64,000 nucleotides of DNA from Symbiodinium sp. CCMP2592 (taxonomy: Eukaryota > Sar > Dinophyceae > Suessiales > Symbiodiniaceae), in the NCBI GenBank assembly GCA_905221615.1, contig CAJNDT010000504.1, forward strand, positions 124,001 to 188,000, written 5' to 3'. Made by a program: the position numbers and the translations under genes. This document shows positions 13,141-45,500 of this stretch, one piece after another. The notes beneath the pieces are model-generated. The model searched no databases. It was not told the DNA's origin and worked only from the letters and a program-made list of their open reading frames with translations. The first letter of the stretch is position 1, and every line of letters starts with the position of its first letter.

Positions 13141-13474
13141 TGCTCAGCGATTGCATGCACAAAAAGGGGGAATACATTCGTGTGCGTCTCGGTGCTCGAG
13201 GCTGCATTGTCTTTTGTGCTGGCATCTGCATTGGCTTTTAGCCCACAGGGCTTTCACTTCAGGCATCCGGGTTGTTTACCCGCTCTGACTTTCCCAATGT
13301 GCAGCATCAAGGCTTCAGCGTCCGGTAGAGAGCTATGCATATTACGTCTTATCACGAGATTCTTTCGAGTCACTTTAGTCGTCAGCTTTCGATAATCTTT
13401 TCACTGTTCCATATGGACTACATTCCGCTTTCCCGGCTGGGCTTTGAAATTCTTCATTAGTTTTGACCGGCATC

Positions 13475-14092
13475 ATGTCCCAGCCGACTGTGCCGAACCC
13501 TCCTCAGGAAAGCATCAGGGACGTACGTTAGATCCGGTCCGCATTTAGGACGGGTGAAACTACTTTCTGCGTTGGCCTCCGATTTTCACTCTCCGCGAGG
13601 GGTGGCATCCTCGGGTACAGATTCATCTTCCAGTACCAACAAAAAGAGGACAAGAAGGCGGCAGGCGGCCTCCATCGCAGGATCCTCCACGACAGCCTTC
13701 CATTAGGCCTGTGTCAGACCCGACCTTCATTGACCCAGCAGCGAAACCGGCTGGGTGTCCTGTTTCGACCAGGCAGCTCACGTGTTGCCGTGCGCCCTGC
13801 AACCGCTGCGATTCATGGTGTGGCTGTAGCTCGGAGGTGCCCTTCGGCTCGCACTTCGCGTCGAAGGAAACACTACATCTTTGCAAACGCTGCTACCGAT
13901 CCAGCAAATCTACATATTCGCGGGGGTCGGATGATGGGTGGCAGCCGGATGAATGGCAGCGCGACTGGCAAGATGAGTCGTGGGACGTCCCACGACGACA
14001 GCGCCTCGGGCAATCCATGGAATTGGAAGTGGCATTACTAGCCACCGCTCCATTCTGTGTGAGACATAGCCTGCCTCGGTTTTGCATTTAGA
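13475..14092 (+). pseudogene. Element A Cys/Trp-rich ORF, frameshifted
   Basis: It begins MSQPTVPNPPQESIRD, comparable to the start of the element C copy (40007). Pieces in two frames match B and C, especially CCRAPCNRCDSWCGCSSEVP, GSHF, LCKRCYR and the Trp-rich end. The frame is interrupted near 13530 and again later. Confidence 0.65.
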
Positions 14093-14375: not shown

Positions 14376-14399
14376 ATGGACTTATCGTCCAGTCTCAGG
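14376..14399 (+). pseudogene. First eight codons of element A gag
   Basis: It encodes MDLSSSLR. Element C gag starts MDLSSILR at 41225. Element B starts directly after AGG (14397-14399), and the gag frame continues at 36633 with GAGGAAGCC, which corresponds to GAGGAGAAG in C. Confidence 0.8.
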
Positions 14400-14526
14400 T
14401 ATGTGTGCTTGCTCACGAGTGTTTGGTAATGTTTTGCATGCTTGCTGCATTCATGACATTCCATGTGCATTGCAGCAAGCAGGCTCGCAGCTGCCATCTC
14501 GCCTGCATAGCGGGCAAAACTTTTGT
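14400..14526 (+). repeat. Element B left terminal repeat A1
   Basis: 127 bp identical to A2 at 36116-36242. It begins TAT followed by the dyad GTGTGCTTGCTCAC (14403-14416). After 14526 the copies diverge completely. Confidence 0.9.
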
Positions 14527-14638
14527 AGGCTAACGGGCCTCGCTTTGTAAGCCCTCTAGAACAGTTCTGGAGGCTCTCAACTTTTGTGGATTTAGCTCCA
14601 CTCCATTCCTCTCCCGCTCGCGATAGGGGGAGGAGTGC

Positions 14639-16288
14639 ATGGTTTCAGGCCATTTTGCTTTTGCGACTTTACAGTGCATTTGGCTTTTCATTTGCATTTT
14701 GGATCAGTCAGTGCCTGTGAGTGATTCGTCAGTGCCTGAGAACGTTGCATTTGCTTCACTGGGAAACGACAGTGCGATTTCTGAGCAGACTCGTTGCATT
14801 GTCAAGCGTTTTCAGAAGCGGACTTCATCTCAGCAGGAATTTTCGCCCACTTTGGAGGCATCGCCTTCTGCTTTGGTTCTTGATGCAGTGGTTGCTTCTT
14901 CTCAGGGTGACCTGGAGGCGGATCCATTGCATGCAGTGGCCTTGTCTGCACAGGAAGCTGCTCATGAGGCTCCATTACTCCCGGAGTTGGTCGTCGCTGG
15001 CCAGGATGATCGGCAGGAGCCACAGCTGGACCCTGAAGGTCTTTCGTTTGGGTCGCGGCCCCCTTCACCAATCTACGATCCTGATTTTGACCTGGTAGAT
15101 CCATTGGAAACTTCTTTATCGCAGACGGCGGCAGCTTCTGCTGAGCATTCGGGTTCAACTTCTTGGGATCTGATTTCGCCTGGGCCCGAGCACACTGCTG
15201 CATTCCGTTCTTTGGAATCCTCTCGCTTCTCCCCACTTCGTGTGGGTCGTCTTTCTTTTGCTGAAGCTATCAGGGAGGTTGAGCAACCATTGCTACCGGC
15301 ATTATCTCAGCAGGTGCATTCTTTCACTATGGAGGCTGACTTGCATCCCAAGCCGGCTCTTTTAGCTCGCCCAGTCACCCTCAATTCCGAGGGTGGTCGG
15401 GCTACAAGCTTGCATCCCGTAAGTGCCAGGTCGACGGAACATGCAAAATCGAGGCCGATTTTTCCGCTGAGGGCCTCCATTGGGGTGCCCATATCAGCGC
15501 CCAAGCCTCGTCCTGTTCCTTCTACTCGTGGTTCTTATGCTCGGTACCCATCAGAAAATTTGCATTCTGCTGACCAGGTGTCTGGGGCTCTCTCGAAGAG
15601 TTCGCCTCCATCTCAGGGCACAGTTACTTCGATCCATTCTGGTGGGGCCCCAGAGCTGCAGTCGGGTCCATTGTTGACCAAGGGTCCTGGTGCCAAGCGA
15701 GGCATTGACCTCCTGCATTCAGGCGAACACAAGGGCAGCTCCAAGGTGGTCAAGCAATCGGAGGTCCATTCCAGTCAGTGGTCCCGGGCCCTTCAGCTGT
15801 GGTCGGAGCTTTGCGAATTTGCATTATCATGTTCTGCATTGCTTTGTGACATTTTCAACAGCTCGAACAAGCTTCCACTCTTGGAACAATTGCTCCGCCG
15901 AGTATCAGACACTACAGCTTTGCGATACATTGCTATTATGTGGCAGCTGCTGCACACTATTCGAGACCTGGGTTTTGACCTTACATCTCTGTCTCAGGTT
16001 CAACTCATTGACTCAATTCATACATTACAGAGATCTCGCAGCCACCACTCGTCAGTACATTCCATCAATGTGCTCAAGGCAGTACGATGGTTCTCTTCCA
16101 CGGTGCAGCCCTCTGGCTTTCCTTGGCAGTCGCAGGGTGCATCTAAAGAGGCTTTACCTCTTCCATTATCCTTTGTACTTTGGCTGGAGGCTCAAATCGT
16201 GTGCGGCCACTTTACATTGGAAGAGACTGCCTTCGCGGGATCAGTGCTTGTTTGCATTTGGTGCAGCTTGAGGTTTGGCGACTCTCAA
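14639..16288 (+). CDS. Element B tyrosine recombinase, N-terminal 550 codons (interrupted by LINE)
   Basis: ATG at 14639; the element C copy has the same ATG context (37028). The first 330 or so residues are a poorly ordered Ser/Pro/Ala-rich region. From about residue 375 the protein shows an alpha-helical core-binding-like part (LLRRVSDTTALRYIAIMWQL), then the catalytic part begins. CIWCSLRFGDSQ is conserved in A, B and C, and its Arg (residue 545) is the likely first catalytic arginine. The ORF is cut after codon 550 (Gln), exactly at the end of the 16-bp target duplication of the LINE. The remaining 317 codons are at 28574-29527 in register. Recombinases of this type integrate circular retrotranscripts without target duplication. 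Confidence 0.82.
16273..16288 (+). repeat. Target site duplication, left copy
   Basis: GTTTGGCGACTCTCAA, repeated exactly at 28558-28573 on the other side of the LINE. Confidence 0.92.
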
Positions 16289-16428
16289 GCTCCTGGCTCG
16301 AACCCTGTTTTCTTCGTGGATCGTCTGTCGTCCTTTGTTTTTAAACACCAGGTCTTCATGTTGCCAGGACTCACTTTCATGGTTGTATCCACATACATAC
16401 TCACTTTGGAAGATTTCTCCTTGCCGCC

Positions 16429-19400
16429 ATGTCGTTTTCACGAATGTTTCTGTGTGCTCTGATGGTGCTGAGCGTTCAGGGCGGATCCCGAAGCCGCTCC
16501 AGGTCACCCATATTTAGCCCCTCTTCGGAGGTCCGCTTGAGTGGCTCTGGAAGCAGTGCTGTTAGTGGACGCGCCGGGCCTATTCGTCGGGTAAGAACTG
16601 CTGGCGCCATTTCACAGAGTGGATTGTACCACAGCAGGGATGATACCTCAACGATATTTCGGCCCCTGGCTTCTGAATGGCAGATGGAACCAGATGCTAC
16701 CGAAACATGCTATCAGCTTACAGAAACAATGTCAGATCCGCCTCACCCCACGCATATGGCGTTTTTGGACACATTGGCAGAGCAAGTATTTGAGAACCAT
16801 ATTGGGCCGGATCTGCAGCGCAACTTGCTCATGATATACATCAATGCTCAGAGAGCACGTCTACGTGAGCTCTTGGATATGGCACCAGGACAATGTTGCT
16901 TCATGTGTTTGTGCAAGGGCTGTGCACGGCCTGGCAGTTGCATATCTCGTGAGTATGCATCCCATGCATCGCAGGATGATTTTTCCCGACTACAGGAAAC
17001 GCGGAACCAGATCAATGACTGCCGTTACCTTAGATGGCGGACTAATCAGTGGAAGCGTACGCTTCAGCGCATGCGACATTGTCACATTCGCAGGTGTCGA
17101 TCTTGCTGTAGCGCTTGTGCTGTGAAGAGGTTTTTGTGGGTTCAGGCAGCTTACGCTTGGCCATTTTTGATGAAAATCTGCACCAGACGCCTTTTGCCGT
17201 TGCATGAGTGCCTCTGTCAGAGTTTGTCTTGCATCAGAGCAATGTGTGTGACACTCTGCAGCCCTGTTGTGGCAAAGTCAGCGACTCGGTGGATGGCCCA
17301 CAAGAAGCTATCTGCGCTACAGGAGGCCATTGCACTGAATCCCATACCCGCCCTCACCGTCAGTTTCAACAGGTCAATCTGGTCTTGGGCTTGCTCGATT
17401 TCGTTTGTGCATGCGCTCTTCGATCGAGCCGGGCGCCTATATCAACAGCTGTTTCTGACAGTGCTTGGAAGCAATCTCTTCTGCTGTATTGGTATGTGCC
17501 CTGGAGAGCTGTACATGATACCCACTTGCATTGCAGCCACTATGCTACATGCTGTGCTCCGATGTTTATCTTCAAGATTGCAGACAGCTGTGTGTGTTTC
17601 AGAGCAGATGTTCCTAGTGCAGTGGTATGCACGTGGTATTTTGTATCCATGGTCAGCGGCAAGTTGTATGCATAATTCCTTCTGTGGTGTGCTGAACTGG
17701 AGTATTTCTCTGGTTACCTGGTACCCGGTCTTGCAATGGCTGGAAGCTCTGATTATAGCGATTTGCCTACTCAAATCAGGCAGGAGCTGGCTTCGCAGCG
17801 TGTACACCAGTCTCTATATGAAATTGATGAGTTTGCTGATCCGGTTGAAGCCGTGGCTGCTGCCCCTGGACTGGATGCGGTGGCTGAGCCATTGGTGCCA
17901 CATGTGGTCTCCAGACCTCCGGCTGGTGCTGGCTCCTATCCGAGCACCTTCGATACAGCTCGCTTCTCAACGGAGCCATTGGTTAAGGCCAAGGCCAAGC
18001 CCAGACCTTCTCAGGCTCCACATGTGCGGTTGGCTGGTTCTCTACGAGGACATAACAAGGGCGCTCTCCGCATTGTTCGCGTCCATAAGGCCCCGCGAAC
18101 TCGACCAAAAGGCCGAGCCCAGGGCTTTGCCTTCTTGTGGAGAGGAGGTATGCAATTGCGCAGGCCTGCCTCTAGCAGCACGGCCACTCAGACGGATCCA
18201 GTGCCTCTCAGCCCTCTGCGACCAATGGTGCAACGACCATCCGTGGACTTCAATGACCCTGATCTATCCGACAACTCTGATGCATTGGGCTATGACTGCA
18301 ATTCGAGTTCCGACTCTGAAAGGCTGTCTGCCATTGCACGCAATATTGTCAGTCAAGACAATCCCTCCGACAACGACTGACATATTTGTATCTTCTGTGG
18401 CCTTTGCCAGGGCTCAGCTGCAGTGGAATACACTGGCACTATTTGATGGAACGTCGGTCATAGCATCTGTATTTTTCTCTGAGACTTGCAATTGGCAGAT
18501 TGAAAAATGGGTGTGGGCCTGCTTATATTCTGCTGTACACGCAAGCAACTTGGAGCGAGAGCTTTCCTATTGGTACCTCCTTCTCGCTCAGGTTGATTGG
18601 GACTGCAAATGTCACAGCCTGAGCCCTCTTCGATGGTACACGCCTGCAGCTGTATGCTCTGTGCCCTGGTGGTATATATTTTCTCCGGCAGCACCCAACT
18701 ATGCCCAGGTCGTGTGCCGCTCGATACAATGTATTCACCCAGACTTGTGCCGATTGCTGCCCGACTTTTATGTGTCATTCGTCTGGATTTGGTGGTATGT
18801 CCTCGCGATTGCAATGGCAATATCGATGTTCCGATGGCAGGTCTTATCTCTTCTGACGCTCCTTGTCCCAGTGCAGCTGGCCATCTGGATGTATTGGTGT
18901 GATGGTTTTCGGTCGATGACAACCCGACCTACCTGCCAGGTACGATTCCACCTCTACACCCTACACAGCCGTTGTTCAATCTGGCTGGTGACTCAGCCGG
19001 CTCACTGCACCCTTCTGATCTTCTGCACTCGGCTGGTTGTGTGGAGCTTGAAGCACTGTCACGATATTTGGTCTGCAGTCTGGTTTCTCCAGTCATGGGA
19101 GCATGTGAGAGACATTATACACATGCCAGTCATGCCGATTGTGTCTGGGAAGCAACGTCTAGGTGTTTGGCTGCATACAATTTATTCTCTGTTTCCCTGG
19201 CTGGGTCAACACATCACTTTAGCTCGGAGTCGCCTGCTTGCTATGTACTCTCCTGCGCACCCCGAGCCCAAAAAGGCCTGGGATCAAAGGCCAACCTTAC
19301 AAAGGAAGAGGCCGCGACCTTCTACGCCACCACCGACAAGCACTCGAGTCCCTCTCCAACGCCGAAGAAGGATCCTTCAGGTGCAGGGTGCCAGGCTACG

Positions 19401-22956: not shown

Positions 22957-23713
22957 CTTGTCCCAGGCCTTTGACACGGCGCCGTGGGCTCTGCTGGAAC
23001 AGGCCCTGAATCGCACTGCAGCACCCAGCGACCTGAAAGGACGTATCATGGAATGGATCACGGGTACTACCTATGTGCTTGAGCACCGTGGATCGAGGGT
23101 CAACATTCCTGCTGAGAGAGGCGTGCGCCAAGGCTGTGTGCTTAGTCCTTTGCTGTGGAGTCTCTTTACTGGACTCATATATGAAGAATTTCAGTACATT
23201 GTTCAGGGATCTGGTCTCTCACCGGACATTGTCTTCTTTGCTGATGACAAGCACTTGGGCTGGCTACTACGAAAGCCTCAGGAACTGGCCCTGGCCCTGG
23301 AACAATTTGGCAAATTTCTTTCTTTGCTACGATCCTTCGGACTCCAAGCCAATCCCACGAAAAGCAAGGCTATACTGTCTATGCGGGGCTCTATGTCTCA
23401 AAGTCTTCGTCGTTTGTGGGTATCACTGTATCGAGGCGAGAGCTGGCTGCGTATTCCGGTGGGACTGAGCAATGAATACATACCTTTGGTGCAGCAGATT
23501 GATTACCTGGGTATTGTCCTTTCGTATGGAAGATTTGAAGACCTCAGTTGGAAGCGTAGGTTCGGTGTCTCTCAGGCCAGCTATGAACGTCTTCGCAAGA
23601 TTCTCTTGGGCCACCATGTGTTGTCTCTGAAGCATCGCATACAATTGTGGCGAGCTGTTGTTCTATCCTCTGCTTGCTATGGACTTGTTGGTGTGGAGCC
23701 AATCTGGTTATGA
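22941..23713 (+). CDS. LINE reverse transcriptase palm (+1 frame continuation)
   Basis: Motif A reads ISVDLSQAFDTAPW, motif B RGVRQGCVLSPLLWSLFTG, motif C FFADDKHLGWLL (F-A-D-D form). Then come GLQANPTKSKA and the thumb region with IDYLGIVLSYG. All catalytic Asp residues are present. The frame joins the preceding ORF by a +1 shift near 22940. It is left again by a second +1 shift near 23700, where VGVEP continues as SGYERLHGMCMRHMR in the next frame. Mutation or assembly error is the simplest reading; programmed shifting is possible. Confidence 0.8.
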
Positions 23714-26660: not shown

Positions 26661-28557
26661 CTTTTCTGACCTCATCGGCCACTGCGGCTGGACTTCGTCT
26701 TTCTGAGCGAGCGTGAGACACTGTCGTTTTGCGGCGAGTGACCATTTAGTGCAAAGTCCTGATACGGCTCATTTTTGTTTCATTGAACATCTAACCAATG
26801 CTTCGGTTTTCGGTCCTCGCGAGATGTATTGTGCCTTTGACACTCTCTTGCTGAACTTGAACTGTTTCATGCCACACCGTGATTCTTCCCCCACTCGACT
26901 GCCTCATACTCTACTTGGTATCCTTGATGTATTGTTCCGGCTTATAGCTGTCACTGGGAGAATTACACTGGCCAAGATGGCCATACGTCTTCTGCCAAGG
27001 ATTCGTCAGGTGCATGAAGCCATATGGGACGTGATACTTCTTTATGTTCCTATGTGCTGTGTGATTGCCATGAGGCTCACCTGACAAGCCTGCGCCTCTG
27101 CATGCATCGGACTTCTCACGAGTGAAGGCCATGTGTGTGGAAGGAAGTCTGATTTCCTCTCTAGGCTGTGGGTTGGTATCGATTGTTCTTGTGACTTCAT
27201 TGAGTTGTTTGTCTCTTTATCAATTTGTTGCCCCCAGCCTATGACGGTCACCGGAGGACTTTTACTCCTGGGCCATGAGGGTCTCACGCACGATCTGCCG
27301 GCCGATTTGTAATGTGCATAGCACTGCATATGGTGGTCAGCGTCTTGGTTTAGCTAGTGGTTTTGTTTCTCATCTGGCCTCAGCACTCATGCACCACCGG
27401 CAGCACGCCTTTTGCGAATATGTATATCTGCTCATCTTCATTGGTCCTACATCTTTATTTGGCTCTTTGTCGCCGATTGTAATTGTTATGTAGTTCTTAT
27501 CGCTTTACAATCAAGATGAGCAGAACTCCGGTACCTCACATGCTTTTCCATGGGACAGATGACCGACTGATAGCAATGCATTGTCTCCTACTACGTCACC
27601 AGTGGAACCTGCTCTGTGGTCATGATAGACTTTGTGCGTTGTCGGTTTATACTTTCATTGCTGCTACCTAATGTCTAAACTGGTATCTCAGAGCATGGTG
27701 CAAGACGGCTGTGACGGCCTCACGTTGAATTGCTGCTCGTTGATTTGTAAGGTGAGTTGAGATACCAATGCTGAGCAATACTCTCTGCAGCTTACACATC
27801 ACCTGTAATCTTGTCATATGCTTGGCGTTTATCTCATTCACATGGCGGCATTCCTCACTACGATTGATTTTTATGCTTCCGGTCTTCAATAGCTGGTGAA
27901 GCCAATCTTTCGTGCACGGTGGACTGATGGCCACAGGCATTATGCTGCCACTTGACTTGTAAGGTGACCTGAACCCTGGACCCCCGCAATGTGCTATGTT
28001 TGTTCACGGTGTTGTTATGGTTCACTTCCTGGGATCCAGCTTTGGTCACCACTGGCAGCTTCTCTGACTATCACTTGACATGGGCCTACGCCTGACTGTC
28101 TTTGATCACTAATTCTGAAGCCATTTCGACGTGGCGTGATCGATCATGGGAATGATCTTTACATTGTTGGTCTCTCACTATGCATACTTTGTATTACCAC
28201 ACTGGTTCTTCCGCCACGTCAGCCTCTTTCACTCTTTCAACTTTACATAAGCTGTTTTGAAGGCTGGATCTCCCATCTGTTATTTCAACACTCTTATGTA
28301 TACCTTATGTCCGCTTTGGCGCTGTTTGATACGATGGGCCTTCAATCAGCCTGTGTTTGTTCCTTCTCGGGTCTTCGGGCCGGGGAACACCGCTGTTGGA
28401 GTGCGTGCTTGGTTCTTCGGAACGGCGCACGGCTCCGTTCTCTTTCTTTCTCTCTGCTATGGATCACAAAGTGAGCGTTCTACCTGAACGCCGTGCAATA
28501 TGCATGTCCTGCGACTCGCTACGTTCGGACTCCGAGCAGCGCTGCAAAGTCAAAAAA
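26661..28557 (+). other. LINE 3' region without convincing ORFs
   Basis: 1.9 kb between the ORF2 stop and the A-run at the target duplication. All frames have frequent stops. It is read as a long 3' untranslated region. No internal repeat or terminator was identified by eye. Confidence 0.6.
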
Positions 28558-28573
28558 GTTTGGCGACTCTCAA
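28558..28573 (+). repeat. Target site duplication, right copy
   Basis: Exact copy of 16273-16288, directly after the A run that ends the LINE. Confidence 0.92.
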
Positions 28574-29527
28574 CACATTCAGTTGTCGGATCTCTACATT
28601 GACTTCGATAGCTTTAGAGGTGCATCTTACCGAACGAAAACACAAAAATTTATGGCATTTGGCTGCCTTTTCTCAGGCCTCTTGAGGCTACCACGCACGC
28701 AATGCTGGCTTTTACATTGGCTAGCGGCTCTCGAGAAACTTATGGATTTGCATTCTGATCCTTCAGACATACCTGACTACATTTTCTTCCTTCTGGACAA
28801 AGGGTGCATCAGACCGTTGACTTACGCAGAGTGCCTTTCCAGGCTCAGACGTTTGCTGGTCATGTGGAACCAGCTTCCATCGGGGCAAGAACTCCAATAT
28901 ACATTGCATTCCATGAAAGTTACATTGCTTTCTTTCTTCAGGCAACTGAATATGTCGCTTGAATCGAGGCACCTTCAGGGCCACCACAAGCACTCAGCTT
29001 CTTGTGTGTTATATGGTCGTGACGATGTCTCTCCATTACTGCTCGCTCAGGACAGCTTCATTGAGAAAGTTAGAGGAGGCTGGCGGTCGCGAACTCCATT
29101 AATGCGTGGAGTCACCTTTATGCCAGTTGAGCCAGCTTTGCAGTGGCCTCCGGATCTAGGGGCAGTTTTGTATGCTGCATTGCCAGTCTTCTTCAGGTTA
29201 GATACATTTCCGCCGACTTTGGTGCCCTCGTCTGATGTACCCTCAGCTTCGGCTGCATCTGTTGCACCGGTCAAGGATGTCATTGCACCTGCTTTACCTT
29301 CAAAGGTTCCTGAAGAGGCGGAAACAAGCAGCTCGGAGGGCGAGCTGGGCGAGGCGGAGGAGATTGCTTTCCTCAGTGCAACCACTAGCTCCATTATACA
29401 TGCTTGCATTGAAGGCAAACCGGCTTGCGGCTGCCGGGGAACCTTCCATTTGATCTCGCACCCACCTGCGGGCTCGCGATTTTGCAAGTCAAAGCCTTGC
29501 ATTTCTATTCTCACGAACCTCTCGTGA
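28574..29527 (+). CDS. Element B tyrosine recombinase, catalytic C-terminal part
   Basis: The frame resumes at codon 551, right after the right copy of the target duplication. Catalytic blocks, numbered on the uninterrupted protein: LHSMKVTLLSF with His662 and Lys665, RHLQGHHKHSAS with His687/688, and LYGRDDVSPL with Tyr697 as the likely nucleophile. This H-x-x-K, GHH, Y arrangement fits DIRS/Ngaro-type recombinases. The last 100 residues are acidic, then a conserved Cys/His tail (SIIHACIEGKPACGCRG, SRFCKSKPC). The full protein would be 867 residues. The absence of stops or shifts on both sides of the LINE shows that it was intact when interrupted. Confidence 0.82.
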   Translation, partial: HIQLSDLYIDFDSFRGASYRTKTQKFMAFGCLFSGLLRLPRTQCWLLHWLAALEKLMDLHSDPSDIPDYIFFLLDKGCIRPLTYAECLSRLRRLLVMWNQLPSGQELQYTLHSMKVTLLSFFRQLNMSLESRHLQGHHKHSASCVLYGRDDVSPLLLAQDSFIEKVRGGWRSRTPLMRGVTFMPVEPALQWPPDLGAVLYAALPVFFRLDTFPPTLVPSSDVPSASAASVAPVKDVIAPALPSKVPEEAETSSSEGELGEAEEIAFLSATTSSIIHACIEGKPACGCRGTFHLISHPPAGSRFCKSKPCISILTNLS

Positions 29528-29829: not shown

Positions 29830-30552
29830 ATGGAGAACATCCGTGACACTGAGGAAGTGCGGAAGGCCCTTAGCTTCCTCTACAACTCAGACGTCCATCA
29901 GGTCGTTAGTTGCATTAGAGGCGGACCGGCGGCTGGCCAGCGCAAGCTGTTACTCATCAGTGCGATGAGCTACCAGCAGCCATCCACTACATCGTCTACT
30001 CCGAAGTCCGACTAAACCTCCATTGAGGAGGACAAGAACAAAGCAGCCCCATCGGAGGAGACGAAGAAAGATGCATCAAGTACGGGGTCGGCTGGTGCAT
30101 CAGATGGTGATCCCCCTTCCACTGCAGATGCATCCAAGACCCCCCGTTCGGGGGATGCAACAGCAGGGGATCCCACTGCATCCCCGCCCGCAGCTGCTGC
30201 AACTACATCCCCGGCTCCGCCGATACAGCCCATTCACAGCCCTACATTCATTCAGGAGGACAACTCGGGCCACAAATGCAAGACGGCTACCAGACAAGTC
30301 GTATGCTGTCGCAATGAGTGCGACACTGATGGTTGCATTGCACTCTGCGGATACAGTTCCGAGGTGCCCAATGACAGCCACTTCATTGCATCCTCAACCC
30401 GCCATGCTTGCAAGGCGTGCTATCGTGCACGCATGCATTCCAAGGAGTCTCAGGATCATGGTACATCGAGTACATCCTGGGACCAAGACTGGGGGGATGA
30501 TCAATGGAACCACGGCGACAGCTGGAACTGGTGGCGTCGAGGAGGCTACTAG
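29830..30552 (+). CDS. Element B Cys/Trp-rich protein, one in-frame stop
   Basis: ATG at 29830 (MENIRDTEEVRK); TAA at 30013-30015 interrupts the frame, which then stays open to the TAG at 30550-30552. The N-terminal part has VVSCIRGGPAAGQRKLLLIS, like LVSYIRSGPALGRVKLLS in element C. The middle is Pro/Ala/Ser-rich. The conserved C-terminal module reads TRQVVCCRNEC, then CGYSSEVPNDSHF, then ACKACYR, and ends in a Trp-rich stretch (WGDDQWNHGDSWNWW). The Cys/His spacing suggests a zinc-binding fold, and a nucleocapsid-like role is a guess. No match to a named family was recognised. Confidence 0.65.
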
Positions 30553-31085
30553 CTGCATCCTCCATCGTGCATTCTTGCACTTTTCTCCATTTTAACAATG
30601 GGCTGCTCGTGTTTTCCATTGACGGCCCAGGAGGTAGACTCAGGTCTCCTCCACAACTTCGGCAGCCACCTTGGCGCCCGCAGCCGACCTCCCAGCGAGG
30701 GAGTGAAAAGTGTTTTCGGATCGGACTGATTGCTTTCTCAGCTTGCATCTGCTGTGTTCGGACCTTTGCGGTTCATGTCCCTCAACACTACTGTGTTGCA
30801 TTCCTTTTGGCCCCAGCGATTGCCATGCTTAGGCATCTTGAGGACATCATGTCACGACCCTTTCTCGGATTGCATTCTTACATCCACTGCACGACTTACA
30901 TTCTCCAAGGCACTTGCATCTGTGCTTGTCAAGCTCTCTGGTAGCATACCAATTTTGCGGAGTAGACGAGTGCAGCTTTGGCTTTCTCCGCGACTGGTGC
31001 ATTCGCACCATTTTACAGGCCTGAGGTCAGTGCATTTCTTCGCTTATTACTTTGTGTCACTGCCAGGTCAAATTCGTTGGGGAGT

Positions 31086-32296
31086 ATGTCGTCCCCCAGC
31101 TTGGAACAAATCCTCAAAGAGGAAAAAGTTCCGGATCTCATTGCAGGGCAACTCACTTCGCAACTCACGGTCCGCTCCTTCCCTTGCATTTGCGAAGGTG
31201 TGGACACTCTGCCAGACTGCATCAAGGATGTCTTGGACGCCCCGGGCCAAGCTCTCCTTACGACTGTCACTTTGGCGTGCTTGAAGGCAGCATACCATCG
31301 CTGCATTTCTTCCGTTATTTCGGCTACTCCCTCAGCTACGTCTGCACCTCCTTCATCGGGCGGTGGAGCTCTCAGTACATCTTCGTGGACAGAGCCTTTT
31401 CCTGCGAAGTTGAGCATTGAACGAGTGAATGCCATGAGAGCTACATTCGAAGCTTCATATCCCTCCGAAATTCTCGATGCATCCAGTATGCCCTCGTCAA
31501 GGCTCCTTGCATCCTGCAACAAGCAAGTGCAGGACAAGCACTTTTCTTACATTCCATGGAAGTTTCGACTCAGCGAAGAGAAACAGGAAGATGTTACATC
31601 ATCCAGACCGAAAAAGATCGCACGTCTCGACGACTTCATTTTTGACGACGTCCCCTGCAGGGACATAGCTGATACTGGCGTGTCGCAAATGTTCCTTTCG
31701 CATTTGTTAGACTTGATCGCCTTTGCATTTTGTTTGCTTGAAATCGGTCACCTCAGCTCCTTTCGTGCATACAACAAGCTCTTCATAAAGCTTGCATTCC
31801 ATCGTCCGCCGCCGGAGTCAGGGCTGCGAAGCCCGAACGTCACGGAAATGCAGGCGGCGGACAGAGAAGCGTGGAAATGCATTTGCGAATTGGTAAACAA
31901 AGGTTGGTGCATGGATGATGCATTGCATGAGATCGTGCAAGTCCGTTGCATCCTACAGTCCTACAGAGTCACCTACAGCCGCGAGTTTTCATTCAGAAAA
32001 CCAGGAGGCCCAGCACTGGGTCAGGCAACACAACTCAGCCTGAAAAAACCCACCCGAAGGGCAAAGGCGGCAAGGGCAAAGGCAAGAATGGGAAGTCGAA
32101 GGACACCTGCGATCAGAATGGCCCCAAGTGGATGGTTTCATTTTATGAGAACGGTGTTCAGAAGCAGATGTGCAAGCGTTGGAACCTTCGCTCGGGTTGC
32201 AAGTTGGATGACTGTGCATTCGTACATGGCTGCGCTGTTGATGTGGGTGGCAGGCCGTGTGGTAAGGATCACCCCGCTTACATGCACAAGTCCTGA
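31086..32296 (+). CDS. Element B Gag-like protein with CCCH finger, one frameshift
   Basis: ATG at 31086 (MSSPSLEQILKEEKV). The alpha-helical first 300 residues are colinear with element C gag (41225). Shared blocks: LACLKAAYHRCIS, ASYPSEILDASS, FSYIPWKFRLSEEK, MQAADREAWKCICEL. Between about 31950 and 32040 the reading moves to another frame, which has a Lys-Gly run, then CKRWNLRSGCKLDDCAFVH (C-x8-C-x4-C-x3-H, a CCCH-type finger) and a second Cys/His patch. It ends with TGA at 32294-32296. The Pol frame is the same as this last Gag frame. Confidence 0.72.
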
Positions 32297-35200
32297 AACA
32301 GCCCGAAACCTGTGGAGGGGCAGCTTTCCGGGCTTGCACCACATGCACCCTCGCCTTTGCCATCGGCTGGCCATACATCTACTTCTGATGAAGAAATCCT
32401 TGACTTGCTTCAGCAGTCTTTTACATCAACCACTGTGAAGTACAGATGGCAGGCTATTGAGGGGGATCGTGCGGAGGCCGCCTACTTCAACCTCGGTGGT
32501 TTCTCTCAGTCGGTGCGTTTTGGCCTGACACACCATACATTCCAATACCAACACATTTTGTGCCGACTTAATGCTTGGTTATGTATGCTTTTTCCATTGG
32601 GTACATGGACATCGTTATGTGTCTCTCACAACGAAGTTCTCAAAGTCCATCGTGATACATCCAATGAGCCAGGCACCCTCAACTACACCGTTGCTCTGGG
32701 TGACTTTTCGGGTGGAGGTTTAATGCTGGAATCTTCATCGGGCGAGAAATCCATGCGAGTCGACGCTTTACAGAAGTGCATAAATTTTTCATTGGTTGAT
32801 ACCAGGACATCACCTCTTGCATTCGATGGTGGTCTTTGGCACGCCACTGAGCCCTTCGTGGGCGACAGGTGGGTCATCACGGCCTACACTTGCAGGCGGT
32901 TGGCGGAATTTCAATCATCGGACATTGATGCATTGCGCATGTGGGGGTTCCCCCTACCTGGTGATTCCTTACCTCATCGGATGCCTCAACCTCAGGCGGT
33001 CGAACTGCCTCAGCCTGCTCTGCCGAAGAAATTCTGCCTTTTGCTGGCTTCACAGCACTCTGAGGTACTTCGTGCCGGCCTCTCAACTGCGGGTATTCCT
33101 CATGTGTGCATTCAGTCTCTTGATCAGGAGCATACAAGAAATTGCATTTTTCGATGTGCTGGGGAAGGTGTTTTCCCTTGCATCTTCATGGTGTACTCTC
33201 CTGACTGGAGTGAGAGTCACACTCGCTGGGTGCTGCAACTCTGCAAAGTTGCATATTCGGCAGGTTCTGCGGTGCACTTTGATATTTCTGGTTGGACCCA
33301 ATGTTGGTCTGATCAACTGTTCCTTCACTGCATTTGTACTGGCCTGCATCACATCGTGCAGGTGCCGGCGTGTGCATACAAGGGAGTTGGTGGCACCCCC
33401 TGGATCATGGTCTCCTCGTCGCCTTCATTTTCTGCATTGGGGCACCCATGCTCGTGTAGTCGGTGCTGTTCGACCTCCACGATTTCTGATTACCCTCCTG
33501 CATTCGTGGATGCTCTTTGCGATATACTGTTGATATCTAAACTCCGCAAATGCTCAGGTCAATGTGAATTTTCCATTGATGAGGCTTGGTCTTGCATTCC
33601 AGAAAAGCCGATTGATTCTCCACCACATGCTTGGGTGGATGGCGGCGGCCTTCACAGCCGTCCAGACTGGAGTGGCCAGGAGCGATCCACTGATGATACT
33701 TTCAAATCGCTCCGCCATGCCTTAATTGCTTGGTGTGGCAAGGCATGCATTCCGTCCAGAGTTCGTCAAAGATTGTTGCATCCATCAGATTCCCATCTCT
33801 TCTCCGAAACTGAGGTGCAGGAAATCCGAAGACTCTTCAGCACATGGCTGGAGTCCCAAGGTTGCAGTTCCATTGATTGGCACGTGAAGGATGGTCAGCC
33901 ATACTGCTTGAATTCTCTGGCTGCATTGTCCTCGGCTCTTAAAGATGCGGATATGACTCTCTTCGGTGCATTGCTGAGTGGTGTTCCTACTGGCTTCAAA
34001 CACGATATCCCCATTTCAGGTGTTTTCGCTCCATCTGGTCGCTCAGCCTCAGATGATGCATTAACGGTTTGCCAGGAAAACTGGCAAGGTGCTGAGGACG
34101 ACCCAGTCCTCCTTGAGGAGCTGGTGCAGATCGAGGTGGACAAAGGCTGGTTAAGGTGCATTGAATCGTTGGAAGCTGCACGCCAGATCTGGCCCAATGT
34201 TGCTGTTGGTAAGCTTAACATTGTACATTCCGAAGGCAGAAAACCTCGCTTGGTGGTTGATTCTTCCATTTGTGGTACAAATGCTTGCTGCCTCATTCCT
34301 GAGCGTTCGGCATTGCCTACATTACAAACTATCCAAGCCTCTTGGCCATTACGGGGAAAACTTGAACCCCTGGCAGCTTGGTCCATTGACGTTCAGGCAG
34401 CTCACAAGTCCATTATGGTTCGCGAGTCAGAACAAGGGCTGCTTGGCATTCGAGTGGGTCCCAAGCTCTATTTCTATACAGTTTGTCCATTCGGTGCAGC
34501 TTTTTCAGCTTTCTGGTTTGCTCGCCTTGGTGCATTTTTCGTTCGCACCCTTCATCGCTTGATTTTCATTGCCCACTGGCTGGCAATGTATGTGGACGAC
34601 TTACTTGGCTTTCAATCTGCATCAGTTGCAGAGATGAGCTTTTGCATTACTTTATGTTTCTGTGGGGCCTTTTCCATCCCCTGGAAGAAATTACAGTTTG
34701 GATGCTCCATCCGTTGGATAGGATGGGAGCTCAATTTCAGTATGGGCTGTGTTTGCATCCCATCGGACAAGCTTGAAAAGTTGCATTCGGTTATCGTGTC
34801 GGCACTCCGTGGCAAGTACACTGACCGTGCTACATTGAGCAAGTTGTGTGGCATGTTGCAGTGGCTTTTCAAACTTTTTCCATTGGCTAGGCCATGGCTG
34901 AGGTCTCTTTATCAGGACCTCAACACTCCACGTGCAACCAACTTCAGTGTTCGACAGAACGACTGGCAATCATTCATTTCTTGCTTGAACGACACTTTAC
35001 ATTTGGTCAAGTTACCTCCTGGATCGGCGGTTACGGTTGGCAGTCGTGTTCTTGCGGTGAGACATCACAAGGTTTCCACCAAGCGAGAACTTTTACATTG
35101 CAACCTGGGGGATAAGGATATATGGCTTCGCATTGCAGACTCTGCCTCCAAGCGTCGTGCATTGAGTCCATCCTCCAGAAGTGTGTTGCAGTTCTGGCTT

Positions 35201-35878
35201 GATTGGTCTGCATTGCCTCCAATTTGGCGATCGCTTCGCCCTATGGAGCATTTACAGGTGGAGGCAGCAGCTGATGCCATGGGCAACGGCCGCACTTTTG
35301 CTATAGGTGGCTACATTGCTTTACCAGGCGGTGAATTTTGGTTTTCAGAATGCTTTACTGTGGAGGATTTTGCATTCGCAGAGCTTCCATTGAAGTCTGA
35401 GGCGCACAAGGACATTACATGTTACGAGTGCCTCGGTCAGATTGCATTAGTTTGGCTTTTGAGTGTACTCAGCCCAGGATGCAAACTGTCTGTTCGCATG
35501 CATTCCTGGTGTGACAACAGTGGGGCGGAAGCCACTGCTAACAAGCTTTTCACTACATCCTGGCCTCTCGCTGCATTTGTGCAGCGACTGGCCATTTTAA
35601 GCAGTTTTACTGGTGTCCACTTGGATGTACATCACATTGCAGGTCCAAAGAACACTGAGGCTGACTTTTTGAGTCGCTGGCTTCCACCAGCTGCCTTGCC
35701 GGCTCGGTGGAGCCTCTCACGAAGGCGTCGCATTGCTTTAAAGGCACTTTGGAATGCTTCGCCTTCCATTTTCGATTTCGCCTCCATCGTGGAAGCCTCC
35801 TTTCAGCATTCCGAGCAGCTCTCCATTAGGAGCAGCACTCTAATCACCTTGTCGCACGTTTTTCATTTGGGGAATTGA
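32297..35878 (+). CDS. Element B Pol: dioxygenase-like domain, methyltransferase-like domain, reverse transcriptase, RNase H
   Basis: The frame is open from 32297, directly after the Gag stop. There is no early ATG in good context; a GTG lies at 32312 (numbering starts there). Residues about 55-195 carry the H-x-D...H...R pattern of Fe(II)/2-oxoglutarate dioxygenases: VHRDTSN (His113, Asp115), ALGDFSGGGLMLES, FDGGLWHATEPF (His177) and DRWVITAYTCR (Arg186). Residues about 230-410 (HFDISGW, ACAYKGVGGTPWIMVSS, DYPPAFVDAL) may be a degenerate methyltransferase-like module. The reverse transcriptase has RLVVDSSICGTN, motif A WSIDVQAAHKS (Asp693) and motif C MYVDDLLG (760-763). RNase H follows with WCDNSGAEA (Asp1068) and HHIAGPKNTEADFLSRW. 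The ORF has no stop or shift, and at 1188 residues it is long for a YR-element Pol because of the two front domains. Confidence 0.85.
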   Translation, partial: NSPKPVEGQLSGLAPHAPSPLPSAGHTSTSDEEILDLLQQSFTSTTVKYRWQAIEGDRAEAAYFNLGGFSQSVRFGLTHHTFQYQHILCRLNAWLCMLFPLGTWTSLCVSHNEVLKVHRDTSNEPGTLNYTVALGDFSGGGLMLESSSGEKSMRVDALQKCINFSLVDTRTSPLAFDGGLWHATEPFVGDRWVITAYTCRRLAEFQSSDIDALRMWGFPLPGDSLPHRMPQPQAVELPQPALPKKFCLLLASQHSEVLRAGLSTAGIPHVCIQSLDQEHTRNCIFRCAGEGVFPCIFMVYSPDWSESHTRWVLQLCKVAYSAGSAVHFDISGWTQCWSDQLFLHCICTGLHHIVQVPACAYKGVGGTPWIMVSSSPSFSALGHPCSCSRCCSTSTISDYPPAFVDALCDILLISKLRKCSGQCEFSIDEAWSCIPEKPIDSPPHAWVDGGGLHSRPDWSGQERSTDDTFKSLRHALIAWCGKACIPSRVRQRLLHPSDSHLFSETEVQEIRRLFSTWLESQGCSSIDWHVKDGQPYCLNSLAALSSALKDADMTLFGALLSGVPTGFKHDIPISGVFAPSGRSASDDALTVCQENWQGAEDDPVLLEELVQIEVDKGWLRCIESLEAARQIWPNVAVGKLNIVHSEGRKPRLVVDSSICGTNACCLIPERSALPTLQTIQASWPLRGKLEPLAAWSIDVQAAHKSIMVRESEQGLLGIRVGPKLYFYTVCPFGAAFSAFWFARLGAFFVRTLHRLIFIAHWLAMYVDDLLGFQSASVAEMSFCITLCFCGAFSIPWKKLQFGCSIRWIGWELNFSMGCVCIPSDKLEKLHSVIVSALRGKYTDRATLSKLCGMLQWLFKLFPLARPWLRSLYQDLNTPRATNFSVRQNDWQSFISCLNDTLHLVKLPPGSAVTVGSRVLAVRHHKVSTKRELLHCNLGDKDIWLRIADSASKRRALSPSSRSVLQFWLDWSALPPIWRSLRPMEHLQVEAAADAMGNGRTFAIGGYIALPGGEFWFSECFTVEDFAFAELPLKSEAHKDITCYECLGQIALVWLLSVLSPGCKLSVRMHSWCDNSGAEATANKLFTTSWPLAAFVQRLAILSSFTGVHLDVHHIAGPKNTEADFLSRWLPPAALPARWSLSRRRRIALKALWNASPSIFDFASIVEASFQHSEQLSIRSSTLITLSHVFHLGN

Positions 35879-35911: not shown

Positions 35912-36115
35912 GGGGGAAAACATGCAGACCCTTTTCACAGGCAGCTTCTTGCTGCTGAAGCTCGGATCTGCATTTCCCGCCAGAGAACAAAAGGAGCGAG
36001 TGTGTGCGAGTGACTGCATCAATTCCCCTTCTTATACATTCTTTGCTTTATATGTATACATTTTTACATATAAAGCTGCATATAGGAAGCAGCTGCGAAT
36101 ACATTAACCGAACGG
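35912..36115 (+). repeat. Element B internal repeat B1
   Basis: 204 bp identical to B2 (36429-36632). It contains a perfect hairpin, GCTTTATATGTA (36045-36056) with TACATATAAAGC (36065-36076). It ends CCGAACGG at the A2 boundary. Confidence 0.92.
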
Positions 36116-36132
36116 TATGTGTGCTTGCTCAC
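36045..36132 (+). promoter_or_regulatory. Element B junction site: hairpin, 39-nt spacer, GAACGG, dyad
   Basis: The hairpin ends at 36076. GAACGG ends at 36115, followed by TAT and the dyad GTGTGCTTGCTCAC (36119-36132; halves GTG-x-GC and GC-x-CAC). It is the join of right-end and left-end sequences, so it equals the junction of a circular intermediate. The last GG is also present at the target (CTCAGG|GAGG), consistent with crossover over these two bases. Confidence 0.6.
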
Positions 36133-36242
36133 GAGTGTTTGGTAATGTTTTGCATGCTTGCTGCATTCATGACATTCCATGTGCATTGCAGCAAGCAGGC
36201 TCGCAGCTGCCATCTCGCCTGCATAGCGGGCAAAACTTTTGT
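36116..36242 (+). repeat. Element B internal repeat A2
   Basis: 127 bp identical to the left terminal repeat A1 (14400-14526). The 186 bp from 36243 to 36428 is a unique spacer without an ORF. Confidence 0.92.
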
Positions 36243-36428: not shown

Positions 36429-36632
36429 GGGGGAAAACATGCAGACCCTTTTCACAGGCAGCTTCTTGCTGCTGAAGCTCGGATCTGCATTTCCCGCCAG
36501 AGAACAAAAGGAGCGAGTGTGTGCGAGTGACTGCATCAATTCCCCTTCTTATACATTCTTTGCTTTATATGTATACATTTTTACATATAAAGCTGCATAT
36601 AGGAAGCAGCTGCGAATACATTAACCGAACGG
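36429..36632 (+). repeat. Element B right terminal repeat B2
   Basis: 204 bp identical to B1, including the AT-rich hairpin (36562-36573 with 36582-36593). It ends GAACGG, after which element A gag resumes. Confidence 0.92.
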
Positions 36633-42380: not shown

Positions 42381-42523
42381 GGACGCTTCATCTTTGCAGG
42401 GGCGGAAGATGAGGCAGTTGTGGAGGAGCCCCCCACCACGGAATCCCAGGCTGTTGGCACTGCTGGACTGCTGGACATACGTTCACTTCGAGTGAAGAAG
42501 TCCTTTCCATTTTTCGGGATGCA

Positions 42524-45500
42524 TTGTCGGAGCCTATGCAAAATTGGAGGTCCCATGCATTGGAGAACTCGTCGAGCTCGGCTGCCTACTACAATTTAGG
42601 TGCTTTCAGTCAATCCATTCGGCGTGGTATCACGAATGCCTCGTACAGGTACCGCAACATTCTTTGCAGATTGAATTCATGGCTTTCGATGTTGTTTCCA
42701 TTGGGGACCTGGACCTCCATTTGTGTATCGCACAGTGAGACGTTGCGATTACATCAGGACTTGACAAATGAGGCCAACGCCCTGAACTTCACAGTGGCAT
42801 TAGGTGATTTTACAGGCGGCGGGCTGCTTCTAGAGTCGACACTAGGCGATCGGGAGCTTTGGGTCCCTGCAATCAATAAGCACTTACATTTCACAGTGTG
42901 TGATACTCGTGCGAATCCCTTATCCTTTGATGGACGCTTGTGGCATGCGACGGATGCATTTTCAAGTGATCGCTGGGTGGTCACGGCCTATACCTGTCGG
43001 GACGTTTCCCTGCTTAGCGCCAAGGAACGTGAAACATTGCTGGCTTGGGGCTTTCCACTGCCAGATGTTGATCCATTGGTGCAGGCCTCGCCAACTTTGC
43101 AGGTTACACCGGAGCTTTCTCTACCCAGACATTTTTGTTTGCTTACCGGGTCTGGAGACCTTACAGGCCTCTCGGCTCCGGGCGACTGCGGTGTGCCCCA
43201 TGTGCATTTTGATTATGCCCAGGATGAACAAGTTCATGATCAGGTCTTTCGCAGTGTTGCCGAGGGCATCTACAAATGCATCTTTGTGCGGTTTCATGAG
43301 TCCATGCAGGCCTCTGAGATTGAGTGGATGTTGAACCTGTGTAACACTGCATTTGCTGCTGGGGCAGTGGTGCATGTCGACGTCTCGGGTTGGCCGGATT
43401 GTTGGTCACATTCCTTGTTGCAGCATTGCATCTCTTCTTTCTTGCACTGGATTGTACACGTGCCTCCATGTGCTTTTCAGGGGGCCTGTTGTCAGCCCTG
43501 GATTTTCATGTCCAGTAGCGATGCTTTCAAGGATATGGGTCAACTATGTCGTTCGTCCAAGTGTCGCGGCCGAAAGCATCCGGCCGAGTACCCTCCTGCA
43601 TTGCTTTCCTCAATGGGCCAGGCACTTACGTTGCCGGCCATTTCAAATGTTTCAGGTCGATGCCTTTTCTCGTGCCAAGAAGCGTGGTCCTGCATTCCAG
43701 TGAAGTCAGCAGAAGCATCACCACATGCTTGGGTCGATGGAGGTGGGCTGAACAGTCAGCCCGATTGGAGCCGGCCCGAAAGGCCAAAAGCGGACGTTTT
43801 CGGTACTCTTCGCGCGGAGCTTCAGAGGTTTTGCTCGGACAATCACATTTTGAGCAGACTGCGATCGCACATCAAAGAAGAGTCGTCAGATCCTCTTTTC
43901 AACCCTACAGAGACGACGCAACTCCGTGGCATTTTCGACAGGTGGTTTGCATCCCAGGGTGTTCAGCCTGTAGACTGGAGAATTCCTTCAGACCAGCCTT
44001 ACTGCCTACACGCTTTGTCGTCCCTTAGCACTGCTCTGGCGGATGGGGATATGACTCTATTCAAATGCCTTCTGGAAGGCGTCCCAACTGGGATTAAGCG
44101 TGACATTCCATTATCGGGCTGTTTCGCTGCCTCGGATAAGGATCAGACCGACCCTGCATTGCAGGTTTGCACCGAGAACTGGACGGGCGCCGAATCAGAT
44201 CCATTGCTGCTTGAGCAACTGGTGCAACAGGAAATTGACTCGGGCTGGTTGCATTCAGTTTCCTCGCTGGACGAGGCCCGCAAGCTCTGGCCTGCTGTGG
44301 GCAAGATGAACATAGTGCATTCCGACGGCAGAAGCCCGCGACTGGTCGTAGACAGCAGCGTATGTGGTACCAACTCAGCATGTTACATTCCGGAAAAGCT
44401 GAGCCTGCCAACTTTGCTTTCCATTGCCACTTCATGGCCACTCCGAGAATCTCTCGGGCCCGTGGCGGCCTTTTCATTGGACGTCAAAGCGGCACACAAA
44501 TCCATTAGGATCAGGCCTGCAGAGCGGGGATTACTTGGTATCCGTGTGGGAAACAAATTTCATTTCTACAAAGTTTGTCCCTTCGGGGCTACATTTAGCG
44601 CCTACTGGTTTGGACGCCTAGGTGCATTTTCCTGCGGGCTATGCATTTGCTGATCTATGCACCACATTTTCTTTCATTATATGTGGACGACCTCTTAGGC
44701 TTCCAGGGCGCGGACCTGGCAGAGATGATGTTTTGCATCCTTTTATGTTTCTGTTCTGCCTTTGGTATTCCATTATCCTGGAAAAAACTGCAGTTCGGTG
44801 TCAGCTTGCGATGGATAGGGTGGCAGCTTGATTTTGCCAAGGGTTGTGTCTGCATTCCGTTCGACAAACTGCAGAAGTTACATTCCCTGCTACAACAGGG
44901 CATGCGGGGCAAATACATTGATCGCCACCTTCTGAGCAAGATCTGTGGGCCGCTGCAATGGTTACCGGTTATTTAAAATCTTTCCCATGGCTAGGCCATG
45001 GCTGCGTGCACTTCATCTGGACCTACATAGCCCTCGGGCTACCAATTTCAGCATTCGTCAATGTGACTGGAAGCGATTTGTGGACTGCCTGGATGATGCA
45101 TTATTTGTGGTGCGGGTTCCAACCGGTTCTGCGATTTGAATTGGGAGTCGGGTGTTGGCGGTTCGGCGCCGGAAGGTCCACACCAAGGCGGAGCTGCTTC
45201 GTTGCAACCTCGGTGACAAGGACATTTGGCTGAGGATCTCCGATCCTGCATCCAAGCGTAGAGCTCTCTCGCCTGCGTCCAAGCAGTTTCTTACATATTG
45301 GCATGGTTGGTCAGCACTGCCTCCATTGTGGCGCCCTTTGCGACCACTGCCCAGGCTTGAGGTTGAGGCAGCCGCGGACGCGATGGGCAGTGGGGATAGG
45401 TTTGCTATTGGCGGTTATATTTCATTGCCATCTGGTGATTTTTGGTTCTTTGAGAAGTTTACTGTCACAGATTTTGCATTCGCTGACATTCCTCTTCGTT

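What the first reader, a model, noticed from the sequence alone, without database searches (positions are those of the whole stretch)
32590..32890. YR-retroelement Pol begins with a Fe(II)/2-oxoglutarate dioxygenase-like domain
Seen: in Pol of element B, H-x-D (His113, Asp115), a GDFSGGGL strand, His177 and Arg186 occur with the spacing of 2OG dioxygenases (64 residues between the His, Arg nine after the second His). In the diverged, frameshifted element C all four positions and the surrounding motif are kept (LHQD, GDFTGGGL, LWHAT, DRW). Known: TET/JBP-type enzymes of this fold hydroxylate DNA pyrimidines, and dinoflagellate DNA contains hydroxymethyluracil. Inference: the element may modify its own DNA or that of its host, to mask itself or to mark sites. 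I know of no description of this fold fused to a YR-element Pol.
Basis: partly seen in the sequence, partly recalled or inferred. Interest (0 to 1): 0.9.

Follow-up and report, generated by a model that had tools for sequence, protein, structure and literature searches.

The report
TET-like oxygenase in jumping gene
A mobile genetic element of a dinoflagellate alga carries, at the front of its copying enzyme, a well-preserved enzyme domain of the kind that chemically alters DNA bases (TET-like), next to what looks like a worn-out DNA methyltransferase, which suggests that the element may chemically mark its own DNA.

The parts
32408..32944 (+). TET-like 2OG-Fe(II) oxygenase domain at the N terminus of Pol (residues about 33-211)
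   Evidence: AF2 pLDDT 85.1/pTM 0.80; structural matches NgTET1, TET2, AlkB; conservation
32648..32656 (+). H113-x-D115 iron ligands
32663..32665 (+). N118, HxD+3, position of TET2 N1387 / NgTET1 D234 / CMD1 D350 (N4 of 5mC)
   Evidence: 31 of 32 relatives Asn; residue roles from PMC7854593 passages; equivalence by spacing
32840..32842 (+). H177, third iron ligand
   Evidence: Arg instead in 2 of 38 genome copies
32867..32869 (+). R186, 2OG C5-carboxylate Arg (equivalent of TET2 R1896, NgTET1 R289)
   Evidence: 34 of 34; roles from PMC7854593; equivalence by spacing
32885..32887 (+). Y192, Arg+6 aromatic, position of TET2 Y1902 / NgTET1 F295 (stacks on the flipped base)
   Evidence: 34 of 34 Y or F; roles from PMC7854593
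33011..33556 (+). Rossmann-type domain resembling DNMT3, without PPC and ENV at the places of motifs IV and VI
   Evidence: AF2 best model pLDDT 70.5/pTM 0.68, the other four models 49-53; Foldseek and VIA best matches DNMT3B/3A/3L entries, TIR domains tied; relatives have a PPCGTASRA domain in this place
34097..34903 (+). Reverse transcriptase (YVDD at 34589)
   Evidence: (RVT_1 E 0.048, below cut-off)
35099..35731 (+). RNase H-like C-terminal region (approximate bounds, by recalled motif)
   Evidence: inspection; no Pfam hit
32297..35878 (+). Pol ORF, one TGA (32294-32296) behind the zinc-finger end of Gag, same frame
30966..32293 (+). Gag region: frame 30966-32435, and CCCH-finger ORF 31931-32293 in the Pol frame (Gag frame is broken in this copy)
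30016..30549 (+). small Cys-rich ORF, matched in two other copies
28475..29524 (+). C-terminal part of the tyrosine recombinase (HSMK ... GHH ... YGRDD)
14627..16459 (+). N-terminal part of the tyrosine recombinase ORF, cut by an inserted LINE (about 16.4-28.4 kb)
14398..14526 (+). left A repeat (100% identical to 36114-36242)
35912..36115 (+). first B repeat
36114..36242 (+). second A repeat
36429..36632 (+). second B repeat
42536..43090 (+). same oxygenase domain in element C (54% identical), all motif positions kept

Best explanation
Pol of this DIRS-type element starts with a catalytically competent Fe(II)/2OG oxygenase of the TET-like, nucleic-acid-modifying type, followed by a domain that resembles DNMT3 without its catalytic motifs, then RT and RNase H. 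Shown by computation: fold, ligands, purifying selection, position in the element. Inferred: it is made as Gag-Pol (readthrough of one conserved TGA, or splicing), is carried in the particle with RT, binds the newly made double-stranded DNA (the DNMT3-like domain serving as DNA-binding or scaffold part, as DNMT3L does; recalled), flips out a pyrimidine and oxidises its 5-methyl group. Likeliest substrate is thymine (giving 5hmU, the host's abundant mark), next 5mC. The mark would make the unmodified cDNA look like host chromatin, or alter methylation and silencing of new copies. My estimates: oxygenase fold 0.97; active enzyme 0.85; TET-like rather than AlkB-like 0.8; DNA of the element as main substrate 0.55; thymine rather than 5mC 0.55 of that; second domain DNMT3-like 0.65 (lowered from 0.75 on re-reading, where one of five models is confident).
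Against: No Pfam, PHROGs or NCBIfam oxygenase model matches; the only oxygenase in the PDB profile search is CcTet at E 1.5 (two of four hits). Foldseek ranks ABH2 as high as CcTet. TET's N3-reading His is C/I/L/V/P/S/A here (0 of 34 His). The HxD+3 residue is not universal in TETs: CcTet has Gly there (PMC12730594). The second Arg of TET (C1 carboxylate) was not located. CMD1 keeps the C5 Arg yet uses vitamin C (PMC7854593), so R186 does not prove 2OG use. CpG o/e and transition counts show nothing special. In Breviolum the 5hmU enrichment is named for Maverick elements, not DIRS. The DNMT3-like model is confident in one of five runs and ties with TIR domains. Activity, localisation and substrate are untested; the RNA around the TGA shows no unusual fold.
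Confidence: 0.6

Rival explanations
1. AlkB-like demethylase: the domain removes N-alkyl groups (m6A, m1A) from the element's RNA or repairs its template, as the AlkB ORF of orchid Gypsy elements does.
Against: The AlkB RxxxxxR motif (PMC9289625 passage) is absent: Arg+6 is Y or F in 34 of 34. VIA prefers NgTET1 by 1.6. Asn at HxD+3 and the aromatic at Arg+6 match TET2.
Confidence: 0.15
2. 5mC eraser: a TET-like enzyme that oxidises 5mC to undo host silencing of the element, as proposed for fungal TET transposons. This overlaps with the best explanation and differs in substrate and purpose.
For: Closest structures are 5mC oxidases; Asn at the TET2 N1387 position; Symbiodinium genomes are mostly CG-methylated (PMC5890265 abstract).
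Against: The N3-reading His is lost; element Pol CpG o/e 0.61-0.65 is no higher than the window's 0.71, so no sign of protection.
Confidence: 0.3
3. Protein hydroxylase: the domain modifies Gag or another protein.
Against: 49 of the 50 printed rows in each belong to TET, AlkB-type or FTO enzymes, which act on nucleic acids (recalled).
Confidence: 0.07
4. Non-catalytic relic kept only as a DNA-binding or folding module.
For: The neighbouring DNMT3-like domain appears to be retained without its catalytic motifs; H177R in 2 of 38 copies; P0005 has lost the D of HxD.
Against: Iron and 2OG ligands stay almost invariant, also between rows about 20% identical.
Confidence: 0.08

Closest known systems
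NgTET1 / TET2 / CMD1 / CcTet (TET/JBP dioxygenases)
   Same: DSBH fold by structure match, HxD...H...R, Asn at HxD+3 as TET2 N1387, aromatic at Arg+6 as Y1902/F295/F416
   Different: No significant sequence-profile match; Arg+8 His (N3 reader) missing; part of a retroelement Pol
SymbioDIRS-Dnmt3 (PMC5890265; abstract, outline and 12 passages seen)
   Same: DIRS-type elements of dinoflagellates, A-coding-B-A-B repeats, DNMT3-type domain in Pol next to RT
   Different: There DNMT3 keeps key residues and methylates CG; here the DNMT3-like domain lacks the motifs and a TET-like oxygenase precedes it; 'oxygenase' and 'TET' occur nowhere in that paper's main text
Orchid Gypsy-AlkB elements (PMC9289625; abstract, outline and two passages seen)
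   Same: 2OG oxygenase carried by a retroelement
   Different: AlkB type with RxxxxxR, additional ORF, LTR Gypsy, m6A RNA demethylase in vitro
Fungal TET+ DNA transposons (Kyakuja, Dileera, Helitron; PMC12730594; passages seen)
   Same: TET/JBP oxygenase carried by a mobile element
   Different: DNA transposons; [quoted passage not shown]
DNMT3A/3B/3L
   Different: Fold-level similarity only, tied with TIR domains (8.7); which of 3A, 3B and 3L is nearest is not resolved; DNMT3L identity of the 6w8j_B chain is inferred from residue numbers

Membership tests
2OG-Fe(II) oxygenase superfamily | DSBH fold | tested here: met
   AF2 model and Foldseek/VIA matches
2OG-Fe(II) oxygenase superfamily | HxD/E...H iron ligands | tested here: met
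   32/32, 31/31, 33/34 of rows with a letter; P0005 has a deletion at D
2OG-Fe(II) oxygenase superfamily | Arg for the 2OG C5 carboxylate | tested here: met
   34/34 at the expected place
TET/JBP | Asp/Asn at HxD+3 contacting N4 of the base (TET2, NgTET1, CMD1; Gly in CcTet) | tested here: met
   Asn 31/32; role from PMC7854593; CcTet from PMC12730594
TET/JBP | aromatic at Arg+6 stacking on the base | tested here: met
   Y/F 34/34; role
TET/JBP | His (Arg in CMD1) at Arg+8 | tested here: not met
   0 of 34 His or Arg
TET/JBP | match to a family profile in Pfam | tested here: not met
   none of 12 members matches any oxygenase model at E<=1
TET/JBP | oxidation of a 5-methyl pyrimidine in DNA | not testable with these tools
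   needs an assay
AlkB | RxxxxxR motif | tested here: not met
   second R is Y/F in 34/34; motif from PMC9289625
DIRS-type YR retroelement | A-coding-B-A-B split repeats | tested here: met
   window and two further copies
DIRS-type YR retroelement | tyrosine recombinase R...HxxR/K...H...Y | tested here: inconclusive
   motifs SLRFGDS, HSMK, GHH, YGRDD in an 881-aa ORF, recalled signature; Pfam and PDB sequence searches empty
C5 DNA methyltransferase (DNMT3) | fold of the second domain | tested here: inconclusive
C5 DNA methyltransferase (DNMT3) | PPC (motif IV) before ENV (motif VI) | tested here: not met
   neither stands at its place in the window family; a PPCAFQG string in element C, P0001, P0003 and P0005 (PAC in the window) lies later and aligns with another Cys of the PPCGTASRA family

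The most novel reading that the evidence does not exclude
A retroelement lineage took over both sides of an epigenetic cycle, a DNMT3-type writer and a TET-type oxidiser fused in one Pol, and in this branch kept only the oxidiser alive to hydroxylate thymine (or 5mC) in its own cDNA, thereby contributing to the 5hmU-rich repeats of dinoflagellate genomes. (Probability lowered from 0.30 because the DNMT3-like model is confident in one of five runs.)
Probability: 0.27. Interest if true: 0.92.

Novelty: new variant of a known kind. Interest (0 to 1): 0.77.

Why it matters
Dinoflagellates replace a large share of thymine by 5hmU, enriched over certain repeats (PMC11071213, passages), and their DIRS elements were known to have captured DNMT3 (PMC5890265). 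A TET-like oxygenase carried by the same kind of element, open in 37 of the 39 copies scored, gives a concrete enzyme to test for who marks transposon DNA. It would be the first retroelement with a TET-type enzyme that I could find. If the second domain is indeed DNMT3-like, a silent methyltransferase sits beside a live oxidiser, which is worth asking about in itself.

Tried and rejected
Sequence-only identification failed: Pfam, PHROGs, NCBIfam, PDB phmmer (8) and PDB profile (67; two CcTet sequences at E 1.5 among four hits). PDB search of the P0006 methyltransferase-like part: nothing related (85). hhalign of the window's post-oxygenase segment with the PPCGTASRA family: probability 0.8%, E 0.074 (83), so their homology rests on place and fold, not on that score. 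CpG depletion and transition counts: uninformative (107). RNA fold around the TGA: z -0.03 (106). Viral-contig scan with A3: no searchable stretch (94). Absence of the oxygenase in other Pols cannot be claimed: of 56 proteins with methyltransferase and RT but no oxygenase match, 3 have 150 or more residues upstream (113). A first per-copy count read many loci on the wrong strand and is replaced. Families absent from the VIA list are not excluded; no JBP chain was seen in it.

Literature: ten answered searches showed no paper with a TET-like oxygenase in a retroelement; only open-licence PMC papers are held. The dinoflagellate 5hmU-enzyme paper (PMC11572971) is not held; I saw only its title in a reference list (47).

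Full report
OBSERVATION. The Pol frame 32297-35878 is open over 1193 codons. Element C has the same motifs in the open frame 42413-44650. The two Pols are 51% identical over 721 residues, the domains 54%.

THE ELEMENT. Element B carries the DIRS arrangement A-coding-B-A-B: A1 14398-14526 equals 36114-36242, B1 35912-36115 equals B2 36429-36632. Its tyrosine-recombinase ORF is split: N part 14627-16459, C part 28475-29524. A LINE with endonuclease and RT matches sits between them; in the C657 copy the two parts are contiguous. That uninterrupted copy shows the order A1, 881-aa recombinase ORF, small Cys-rich ORF, 507-aa Gag ORF, one TGA, 1183-aa Pol ORF, B1, A2, B2, about 10 kb. The recombinase is named by its motifs (SLRFGDS, HSMK, GHH, YGRDD; recalled signature); Pfam and the PDB sequence search find nothing. 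Gag's end and Pol lie in one frame separated by a single TGA (TCC TGA AAC) in 9 of the 10 distinct copies examined, element C being the exception (L005 was examined a second time as L040+L041). In the window copy the Gag frame itself is broken. In the database protein P0001 (Symbiodinium microadriaticum) Gag and Pol are joined, with the finger region and the TGA left out, so splicing is an alternative to readthrough.

RESIDUES. Three protein searches returned 100 proteins; those with an organism name are Symbiodinium. 42 domain matches in 41 of them, aligned to profile A3, give, among rows with a letter: H73 32/32, D75 31/31, N78 31/32, H137 33/34, R146 34/34, Arg+6 aromatic 34/34 (32 Y, 2 F), Arg+8 never His (21 C, 5 I, 2 L, 2 V, 2 P, 1 S, 1 A). 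P0005 has a deletion at the D and lacks the second half of the domain. Ten of the 12 A3 rows are slices of these same proteins, so for those the alignment is not independent; A3 rows are 20-71% identical to the window. The CMD1 structure paper says that N4 of 5mC is bound by D350/N1387/D234, that F416/Y1902/F295 stack on the base, that H1904/H297 read N3, and that R1896/R289 hold the 2OG C5 carboxylate (PMC7854593, passages). The spacings D347-D350, R1896-Y1902-H1904 and R289-F295-H297 equal those here (D115-N118, R186-Y192-C194). Equivalence is by spacing plus fold, not by a residue-level superposition, which the tools did not print. CcTet has Gly at HxD+3 (PMC12730594), so that position is not universal. 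AlkB's RxxxxxR (PMC9289625) is not met. So the metal site, the 2OG Arg and the base-stacking and N4 positions are TET2-like; the N3 reader is not, which leaves the base open. Asn might also face O4 of thymine: the CMD1 authors considered this for D350N, but that mutant did not act on T.

SELECTION. 39 Pol copies at 89-100% identity were scored out of 6072 candidates of the first look; 37 of them have no inner stop. Ligand positions are kept in 38/38, except H177 36/38 (Arg in L005 and L009); one of the 39 rows has no letters there because only its longest open piece was used. NG86 dN/dS of residues 41-200: 0.067 between subfamilies (15 by 24 copies), 0.046 and 0.077 within them; DNMT3-like part 0.076, 0.111, 0.143; RT 0.026-0.036; RNase H region 0.046-0.107. 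Pairs are not independent. Oxygenase and RT distances go together in the 10 Pols that have both at sufficient length (Mantel r 0.970, 1 of 5000 shuffles), mainly through the deep split of two groups.

MECHANISM. See Best explanation. Shown: architecture, oxygenase fold, conserved site, selection. Inferred: packaging as Gag-Pol, action on cDNA, thymine as substrate, marking as the benefit. [quoted passage not shown] this would be the oxidising counterpart.

NOVELTY. [quoted passage not shown] PMC5890265 has no mention of 'oxygenase' or 'TET'. Ten library searches showed no report (listed under Tried and rejected). The library lacks most subscription papers, so absence there is not proof.

Noticed in passing
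16345-28474: A LINE-type element (endonuclease ORF 16345-22953, RT ORF 22886-23710) lies inside the tyrosine-recombinase gene of element B.
   Followed up: partly
32294-32296 and 8 other copies: Gag and Pol are in one frame separated by a conserved TGA (TCC TGA AAC), suggesting stop-codon readthrough or splicing; no unusual RNA fold there.
   Followed up: partly
Pol residues 1-200 of the 39 genome copies: Synonymous divergence between the two Pol subfamilies is 0.22-0.27 in the first 200 codons but 0.7-1.4 further on: the 5' part, oxygenase included, was probably exchanged between subfamilies more recently.
   Followed up: no
L005, L009: Two otherwise open copies carry Arg in place of the third iron ligand His177.
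   Followed up: no
P0006-P0075: A large Pol family, named members from Symbiodinium, carries a methyltransferase-like domain (PPCGTASRA, ENP) in front of RT; four members scanned had no methyltransferase match in Pfam.
   Followed up: partly
P0023, P0034, P0041, P0088, and weakly P0057: In some relatives the order is methyltransferase-like domain first, oxygenase second.
   Followed up: no
11391-14088 and 3-494: Fragments of further elements of the same kind (recombinase, Cys-rich ORF, RNase H end).
   Followed up: no
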